Part shown: positions 29,660 to 52,504 of the stretch, one piece after another | How positions within the stretch are numbered: the first letter of the stretch is position 1 | How the letters are laid out: each line of letters starts with the position of its first letter | Assembly: GCA_937951485.1 (NCBI GenBank) | Contig: CALEDJ010000029.1 | Coordinates: 1 to 64,000 of the forward strand | Length of the DNA: 64,000 nucleotides | From: an uncultured bacterium | Lineage (GTDB): Bacteria > Hydrogenedentota > Hydrogenedentia > Hydrogenedentales > CAILVY01 | Direction: 5' to 3' | Notes under the pieces: model-generated | What the model was told of the DNA's origin: nothing | The model's database searches: none | The model's input: the letters and a program-made list of their open reading frames with translations, nothing else | Translations under genes and position numbers: made by a program

Positions 29660-30088
29660 TCAGCCTTTTTTCCGTCTTGATGCATAGGCCCCTGCAGCGG
29701 TGATGACCACAATGGCGGCGGTGGCCGTGACGGCGATGGCGGTCTTGACCGCGCGCTCCACCTGTTTGCTTTTCCACTTGCCGGTCTTGCAGCCGACAGC
29801 GAAATGTTCACAATTGCGGAAGAGGACATTGTATTTGCGCTCACCCAGAAAAGACTTGGCGGTCTTGATGACCTCTTTCACGGGACGCGCTTTTCCGGGG
29901 GCGTACTTGACCACGGCGTGCTTCTTCCCTTTGCAGAATTCCTCCAGGGGCGATCGGCAGACATGCGCATCTTTGATATTGAACAATTCTCCGGAGTAAT
30001 GGATGACCGTGCCGTCGCCCATGTCAATCCCATGATGCGTGTATAGTCCGCCCATCCGTTTTACTGTTATATGGTCGCCTTTGGCCAT
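29660..30088 (-). CDS. LRAT-domain protein (NlpC/P60-like thiol acyltransferase/hydrolase fold)
   Basis: A 142-residue protein with the circularly permuted NlpC/P60 fold of the LRAT family. The H-box is LYTHHGIDMGDGTVIHYSG (His19, and His30 as likely third residue). The nucleophile motif is RNCEHFAVGC with Cys93. A basic stretch leads to a C-terminal membrane segment (about 113-136) and a lysine/arginine tail. Domain, NCEHF motif and tail anchor resemble vertebrate PLAAT/HRASLS phospholipase-acyltransferases. A lipid substrate at the membrane is therefore plausible but inferred. The start at 30088 is set by the fold; the SD is weak. A MITE-like insertion lies 14 nt upstream. Confidence 0.78.
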   Translation of the reverse strand: MAKGDHITVKRMGGLYTHHGIDMGDGTVIHYSGELFNIKDAHVCRSPLEEFCKGKKHAVVKYAPGKARPVKEVIKTAKSFLGERKYNVLFRNCEHFAVGCKTGKWKSKQVERAVKTAIAVTATAAIVVITAAGAYASRRKKG

Positions 30089-30102
30089 GCCCAATCTCTG
30101 TT

Positions 30103-30260
30103 GGTAACCGTTCACGGGGTCAAGAATTCGAAAACACCCGGAAAACCGCACTTTTTCGGCGCACAAGTCGTCGCATTTTGCCGCATTTTCGCGCCGTTCT
30201 CCCGCTGCAATTGCGAAAAACCCCATGTTTTTGGGGGGTTCAACCCCGTGAACGGTTACC
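30103..30260. mobile_element. 158-bp MITE-like element with perfect 18-bp terminal inverted repeats and 6-bp target duplication
   Basis: The left terminus GGTAACCGTTCACGGGGT (30103-30120) is exactly the reverse complement of the right terminus (30243-30260). The hexamer TCTGTT lies directly outside both ends (30097-30102 and 30261-30266), as a transposition footprint. The interior has no coding capacity, so the element must be moved by a transposase encoded elsewhere. It sits in the leader of the LRAT gene and cuts the end of a small frame upstream of it. Confidence 0.85.
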
Positions 30261-30416
30261 TCTGTTGTTGCATGTTTTCGCTTCGATTTCGTTGTTCCAC
30301 GCCATCTTCCGATTCGCGAATTGATGCGCCATCATTTTTGCTTGTATCAATCCCCCGGCGGTCTCATACCGGCGGCGCACGAGTTGCCGGTGCTCCTCCG
30401 GCATTGGACTTTTCAT
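30240..30416 (-). CDS. Small hypothetical protein, 3' end altered by the MITE-like insertion
   Basis: A 58-codon frame starting MKSPMPEEHRQLVRRRY, 13 nt after the engB stop, with AAGG upstream. It is rich in Arg, Lys, Glu and Gln and has no recognisable domain. Its last codons lie within the right inverted repeat of the inserted element. If the element and one copy of TCTGTT are removed, the frame would run through the LRAT start region and stop about 17 codons later. So the original gene probably overlapped the LRAT gene. It may not be a real gene. Confidence 0.35.
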   Translation of the reverse strand: MKSPMPEEHRQLVRRRYETAGGLIQAKMMAHQFANRKMAWNNEIEAKTCNNRGNRSRG

Positions 30417-30429
30417 GCCTTGACCTTCT

Positions 30430-31023
30430 TCACGCATCGTGCGCCATCTGCCGATCAATAATCTCCCAGAGAGGACGGACACCTTCGCCGGTTTCGGCGG
30501 AAAAGGGGATGATCTCCACGTCATGGTCCAAACTCAGGCCACGCCGGATTTTTTGAATCTGCGCGTCGCGTCGGCCCTTGCTGACCTTGTCTATTTTGGT
30601 CGCCACCAGCAGCGTCGGGGTTTGGGCGTCTTCGAGCAGGTCCAGCATGTGCGCATCGAGCGGCGAGGGATCATGGCGGGAATCAAGCAGCACGACGGCC
30701 AGCCGCAGGGTCTCGCGATCTTTGAGATACTCGACCATCACGCGGTTCCACTCGTTCTTGAGCGCCTTGGGCACCTTGGCGAAGCCGTAGCCGGGCAAAT
30801 CCACGAAATAGATTGTCCCATTGATGTCGAAGAAGTTGATGGTCTGTGTTTTTCCGGGTGTGGAACTGGTTTTGGCAAGCCCCTTCCGGTTCAGGAGCCG
30901 GTTGAGCAAACTCGACTTGCCGACATTCGATCGGCCCACGAAAGCGATTTCCGGGCGGCGGTCCCTGGGATAGTCCTCAGGCCGCAGCGCGCTTTTCAGA
31001 AATTGCGCCGAGGTCACTTTCAT
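30430..31023 (-). CDS. engB: Ribosome-biogenesis GTPase EngB/YsxC
   Basis: A 197-residue TRAFAC GTPase needed for assembly of the large ribosomal subunit. G1 is FVGRSNVGKSSLLN (about 29-41), G2 the conserved Thr in SSTPGKTQTINFF, G3 VDLPGYGFA, G4 TKIDKVSK and G5 SAETGEGV. Length is typical (about 195-210). It lies 30 nt downstream of lon, an order also found in Bacillus (lonA-ysxC), so co-transcription is likely. Confidence 0.95.
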   Translation of the reverse strand: MKVTSAQFLKSALRPEDYPRDRRPEIAFVGRSNVGKSSLLNRLLNRKGLAKTSSTPGKTQTINFFDINGTIYFVDLPGYGFAKVPKALKNEWNRVMVEYLKDRETLRLAVVLLDSRHDPSPLDAHMLDLLEDAQTPTLLVATKIDKVSKGRRDAQIQKIRRGLSLDHDVEIIPFSAETGEGVRPLWEIIDRQMAHDA

Positions 31024-52405: not shown

Positions 52406-52504
52406 AGGCATTTGCGAAATGGGCGTTCCGGACCTCAGTCCCATCAATAATCCCGGATATTTCGCGCTCTCAGGCGCGGAAACAGCCCATTTCGCAAATG
52501 CCTG
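52406..52504. repeat. 99-bp element with 19-bp perfect inverted repeats, possible MITE
   Basis: AGGCATTTGCGAAATGGGC (52406-52424) is perfectly repeated in inverted form at 52485-52503. The pairing continues inward with gaps (GTTCCG against TGTTTCCG). The hexamer ACCCGA flanks both sides (52400-52405 and 52505-52510), offset by one base on the right. This may be a target duplication. A regulatory hairpin is the alternative. It lies upstream of the ExeA-like gene. Confidence 0.55.

What the first reader, a model, noticed from the sequence alone, without database searches (positions are those of the whole stretch)
30097..30266. MITE-like element with perfect termini and a clear 6-bp target duplication
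A 158-bp segment has exact 18-bp terminal inverted repeats and TCTGTT on both outer flanks. The interior is non-coding. This is the signature of a non-autonomous DNA transposon. It interrupts the end of a small frame and places new sequence in the leader of the LRAT gene.
Basis: seen in the sequence. Interest (0 to 1): 0.62.

Follow-up and report, generated by a model that had tools for sequence, protein, structure and literature searches.

The report
Small IS66-type jumping DNA element
This is one of about 17 copies of a 156-base, protein-free jumping DNA element in a Hydrogenedentota bacterium; its ends and the 8-base duplication it leaves mark it as a passenger of the well-known IS66 transposon family, so it is real but ordinary.

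Summary
The element is 30104-30259 (156 bp) with perfect 17-bp inverted ends, GTAACCGTTCACGGGGT. The flanking duplication is 8 bp (CTCTGTTG, 30096-30103 and 30260-30267), not 6. The 18th "TIR" base is a chance G/C pair at the inner edges of the duplication: other copies carry any base there. The genome holds about 16 full insertion loci plus one remnant, 91-99% identical. Ten have an exact 8-bp duplication; for three of these it is recovered across contig breaks. Two copies sit at the same point of a 98-bp repeat whose uninterrupted copies hold CGGGATTT once, so empty sites are shown. GTAA ends plus an 8-bp duplication fit IS66-family transposition. Complete IS66 elements elsewhere have the same ends: a 1504-bp single-gene one (8-bp duplication) and a 2577-bp one matching 20 of 20 bases of the MITE's left end. 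No IS66 transposase (PF03050) was found in this 94%-complete genome, so the helper is lost, unassembled or from outside. Effects on the LRAT gene, 15 bp downstream, are untested. New member of a known kind; modest interest.

The parts
30104..30259 (.). Non-autonomous IS66-type miniature element (MITE), 156 bp, non-coding
   Evidence: about 16 full loci plus 1 remnant in the genome, 91-99% identical
30104..30120 (+). Left terminal inverted repeat GTAACCGTTCACGGGGT (17 bp)
30243..30259 (-). Right terminal inverted repeat, perfect complement of the left (17 bp)
30096..30103 (.). Left copy of 8-bp target duplication CTCTGTTG
30260..30267 (.). Right copy of 8-bp target duplication CTCTGTTG
30221..30236 (-). 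Terminator-like hairpin inside the element (CCCCAAAAACATGGGG + TTTTT), facing LRAT; function not tested
   Evidence: 2 such sites found in the region against 0.8 in shuffles; stem and T-run kept in most other copies
29660..30088 (-). LRAT-domain gene whose leader carries the insertion (ATG 15 bp from the element edge)
   Evidence: PF04970 E=3.3e-26; homologues align from residue 1
30430..31023 (-). engB/yihA-type GTPase gene upstream of the insertion (named from its sequence)
   Evidence: 63-67% identical proteins next to LRAT in G012 and G004

Best explanation
A non-autonomous miniature element of the IS66 transposon family. An IS66-type DDE transposase supplied in trans recognised the 17-bp ends (GTAACCGTTCACGGGGT), inserted the 156-bp element into CTCTGTTG in front of an LRAT-domain gene, and host repair of the staggered cut duplicated the 8 target bases. 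The same happened at about 16 other places. Shown: structure, copy number, 8-bp duplications, empty sites, and matching ends on complete IS66 elements in other genomes. Inferred: that an IS66 transposase moved it, that the transposase is now missing or unassembled here, and that the copies are largely immobile. Any effect on LRAT expression, through the new leader or the internal terminator-like hairpin, is speculation.
For: Perfect 17-bp TIR and 8-bp TSD. 19 match places in the genome, 91-99% identity. Exact 8-bp duplications in 7 intact copies, 3 more recovered by pairing flanks across contig breaks, 2 with one mismatch. Two copies (C6; C16-right/C19) lie at the same point of a 98-bp repeat; 15 uninterrupted copies hold CGGGATTT once. 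IS66 elements with the same ends: L219, 1504 bp, ends GTAATCGTTCAC/GTAACCGTTCAC, TSD CAGAAAGG, 476-aa PF03050 protein; L130, 2577 bp, TSD AATAATTG, left end identical to the MITE over 20 bp, 485-aa PF03050 protein. Further IS66 genes with GTAACCGTTCACGG at an end lie in L211, L212 and L222, and in the window's own phylum in L288 and L299. 46 short paired-end arrangements with these ends in other bacteria, 23 with TSD of at most one mismatch. Literature: ISDge4 of the ISBst12 group of IS66 has ends GTGACTACTCAGCA/GTAACTGCTCAGCA, one 449-aa ORF and 8-bp duplication CCTCGATG (PMC12898284); two Paracoccus IS66 elements are listed with 8 in the target-duplication column (PMC3281130).
Against: No IS66 transposase in the host genome (PF03050, 0 matches); the genome is 94% complete and in 77 contigs, so absence is not proof. 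Similarity to known IS66 elements is confined to the terminal 17-20 bp, so descent by internal deletion of a particular IS is not shown. Four copies have no clean duplication.
Confidence: 0.9

Rival explanations
1. A MITE moved by a different transposase family that also makes 8-bp duplications; the resemblance of the ends to IS66 ends is convergence.
For: No IS66 transposase in this genome; interior unrelated to any IS66 found.
Against: The terminal 17-20 bp match IS66 ends in several genomes, with 8-bp duplications around complete IS66 elements.
Confidence: 0.06
2. A host repeat of the REP/ERIC type or a conserved regulatory RNA element of the LRAT leader, not a transposon.
For: Strong folding of the element on both strands (z -5.3 and -6.1).
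Against: Target duplications and empty sites; copies at unrelated places, some inside long reading frames; absent from the other genomes of the phylum; no Rfam match. The folding is largely what perfect terminal repeats give by themselves.
Confidence: 0.02
3. The insertion was selected because it retunes LRAT: the internal terminator-like hairpin stops read-through from engB, or the new leader alters translation. (Compatible with the IS66 origin; a claim about consequence.)
For: engB and LRAT lie next to each other in G012 and G004; the minus-strand hairpin plus T-run lies between them.
Against: No promoter-like site found; the hairpin is part of the element in other copies as well, so it is not specific to this site; two such terminator-like sites were found where shuffles gave 0.8.
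Confidence: 0.1

Closest known systems
IS66 family, ISBst12 group (for example ISDge4 of Deinococcus geothermalis)
   Same: Ends of the form GTAAC..., 8-bp direct repeats (PMC12898284)
   Different: 156 bp with no transposase gene; transposition not observed
IS66-type element of a Desulfobacterales MAG (L130, 776-3352)
   Same: Left end identical over 20 bp to the MITE, 8-bp duplication AATAATTG
   Different: 2577 bp, carries an IS66 transposase and a DruA-domain gene; no similarity beyond the ends
Bacterial MITEs such as MITEPsy1 (100 bp, 18-bp TIR)
   Same: Short, non-coding, multi-copy, TIR plus target duplication (PMC3189936)
   Different: MITEPsy1 makes 4-bp duplications and is linked to ISPsy2, which is present in the same genome

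Membership tests
MITE (non-autonomous miniature transposon) | Short, no transposase gene, terminal inverted repeats | tested here: met
   156 bp, 17-bp perfect TIR; too short to encode a transposase
MITE (non-autonomous miniature transposon) | Target-site duplication and empty sites | tested here: met
   8-bp duplications at 10 loci exactly; single-copy target in uninterrupted 98-bp repeats
MITE (non-autonomous miniature transposon) | Multiple similar copies | tested here: met
   19 match places, 91-99% identity
MITE (non-autonomous miniature transposon) | Autonomous partner with the same ends in the same genome (usual, not strictly required) | tested here: not met
   PF03050 0 matches in G000; partners only in other genomes; genome 94% complete
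IS66 family | 8-bp target duplication | tested here: met
   IS66 duplication size from PMC12898284 and PMC3281130
IS66 family | Ends beginning GTAA and matching those of IS66 elements | tested here: met
   L219 and L130 complete IS66 elements
IS66 family | Encodes a DDE_Tnp_IS66 transposase | tested here: not met
   Element is non-coding; hence filed as an IS66-type MITE, not as an IS66 element
IS66 family | Moved by an IS66 transposase | not testable with these tools
   needs a transposition or binding assay

The most novel reading that the evidence does not exclude
The 17-bp end GTAACCGTTCACGGGG(T) is a shared 'currency' across Planctomycetota, Desulfobacterota, Hydrogenedentota and others: orphan MITE families with unrelated interiors are mobilised by whichever IS66 of this subgroup passes through, so that a genome can keep and amplify MITEs without owning the transposase.
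Probability: 0.2. Interest if true: 0.45.

Novelty: new member of a known kind. Interest (0 to 1): 0.25.

Why it matters
It gives a clean IS66-type MITE family in Hydrogenedentota (none found described in the papers searched), with empty sites, and shows how the size of the target duplication identifies the helper family. It explains several contig breaks of this assembly. It does not reveal a new mechanism.

Tried and rejected
6-bp duplication and 18-bp TIR: rejected because the outer base varies among copies and 8-bp duplications fit all clean copies. Structured RNA: no Rfam match. An IS66 copy in the host genome: none; two isolated single ends (C68:68359, C16:185446) have no partner end and no IS66 remains nearby. 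Interior homology to other genomes: only the ends match; a 34-bp hit in G012 (E 1.2e-4) covers positions 78-111 only and lacks the ends. A gene for the 58-aa frame ending in the element: no match in relatives' loci. The exact orthologous empty site: the two same-family genomes hold LRAT homologues, but engB was not found beside them in the loci fetched; G012 and G004 have engB next to LRAT without the element, but were too diverged to align the leader by eye. Literature linking MITEs with IS66 gave nothing specific.

Full report
Observation. The only inverted repeat of the region is 30103-30120 / 30243-30260, 18 nt and perfect. The genome-wide search with the 18-mer shows that the first base differs from copy to copy while the following 17 bases are nearly constant. 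With the edge moved in by one base the element is 30104-30259, 156 bp, and both sides carry CTCTGTTG, an 8-bp duplication.

Copies. The genome (4.55 Mb, 77 contigs, 94% complete) holds 19 match places. Seven intact copies have exact 8-bp duplications: CTCTGTTG, GAGAAGTC, CGGGATTT, TGTATATC, AAGCCCGT, GGACTCAG and GAAACCCT. Two more have one mismatch. Several contigs break inside the element. Pairing flanks gives three further exact duplications: C3 end with C30 start; C41 end with the left flank of the C16 copy; C19 start with the right flank of the C16 copy. The C16 copy therefore joins two different insertions, either by mis-assembly or by recombination between copies. Counting in this way gives about 16 full loci and one 47-bp remnant (C9). 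Copies fall into two groups: the window copy with C16, C29:132821 and C6 (97-99% identical), and the rest (91-94% to the window copy).

Empty sites. The C6 copy and the C16-right/C19 copy sit at the same place of a 98-bp palindromic repeat that has some 40 copies in the genome. Fifteen uninterrupted copies examined carry CGGGATTT once; the interrupted ones carry it twice. For the window's own site no close relative is held. G012 and G004 (same order) have engB next to LRAT without the element, but the leaders are too different to align.

Which transposon. GTAA ends and 8-bp duplications are traits of the IS66 family. In the held literature ISDge4 (ISBst12 group, one 449-aa ORF) has a GTAACTGCTCAGCA end and an 8-bp repeat (PMC12898284), and two Paracoccus IS66 elements are listed with 8 in the target-duplication column (PMC3281130). 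A scan of bacterial genomes for GGTAACCGTTCACGGG gave over 100 stretches, mainly in Planctomycetota and Desulfobacterota/deltaproteobacterial MAGs. Among these loci, 46 short paired-end arrangements of 60-400 bp were found, 23 with a duplication of at most one mismatch. Searching the 33 genomes behind 36 of these loci for PF03050 found IS66 genes in 24. L219 is a complete 1504-bp element with matching ends, TSD CAGAAAGG and a 476-aa PF03050 protein. L130 is a complete 2577-bp element with TSD AATAATTG, whose left end equals the MITE over 20 bp; it carries a 485-aa PF03050 protein and a DruA-domain gene. L222 has the exact 17-mer 270 bp from its IS66 domain. Within the phylum, IS66 genes of this subgroup with GTAACCGTTCACGG at an end occur in G026 (L288) and G051 (L299).

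Missing helper. The host genome has no PF03050 and no PF14236 match. Loss, failure to assemble, or past supply from a mobile element are all possible.

Host. Kinship from the tool puts G049 in the window's order and phylum. Its locus L280 is identical to L205 from G095, the genome holding L110, titled 'Candidatus Hydrogenedentota bacterium'. The window is therefore from Hydrogenedentota.

Local effect. The element lies 15 bp upstream of the ATG of an LRAT-domain gene (PF04970) and downstream of engB on the same strand. It contains a terminator-like hairpin facing LRAT, kept in most copies, and folds strongly as expected of its TIRs. It also opens an in-frame ATG upstream of LRAT (30226), but homologues start at the native ATG. 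No functional claim is made.

Verdict. A well-formed, correctly recognised MITE, here assigned to the IS66 family; ordinary in kind.

Noticed in passing
window 52406-52503: A copy of a second, 98-bp palindromic repeat family (ends AGGCATTTGCGAAATGG, some 40 copies in the genome). 13 of 27 examined loci have direct repeats of 5-7 bp at their edges (window copy: ACCCGA) against 7 of 702 mismatched flank pairs, so it looks like another MITE family; its parent IS was not identified.
   Followed up: partly
L130 776-3352; L204; L216; L227; L292: A DruA-domain (PF14236) gene sits beside an IS66 transposase in four genomes; in L130 both lie inside one element bounded by the TIRs and an 8-bp duplication, so DruA-like proteins can be IS66 passengers.
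   Followed up: partly
G000 C16:91323-91478 (L150) with C41 end (L155) and C19 start (L154): The C16 MITE copy has non-matching flanks that each pair with a contig end elsewhere, so the assembly is mis-joined or the copies recombined there.
   Followed up: partly
window 29660-31023 and L266, L267: An LRAT-domain gene lies directly downstream of engB in this genome and in G012 and G004 of the same order; the pairing is unexplained.
   Followed up: no
L038-L148 (many): Short elements of 80-300 bp with GTAACCGTTCACGGG ends and 8-bp duplications, but different interiors, occur in several phyla.
   Followed up: partly
L308 3360-3374 (G000 C68:68359): A lone MITE/IS66 end (15 of 17 bases) with no partner end or transposase remains.
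   Followed up: yes
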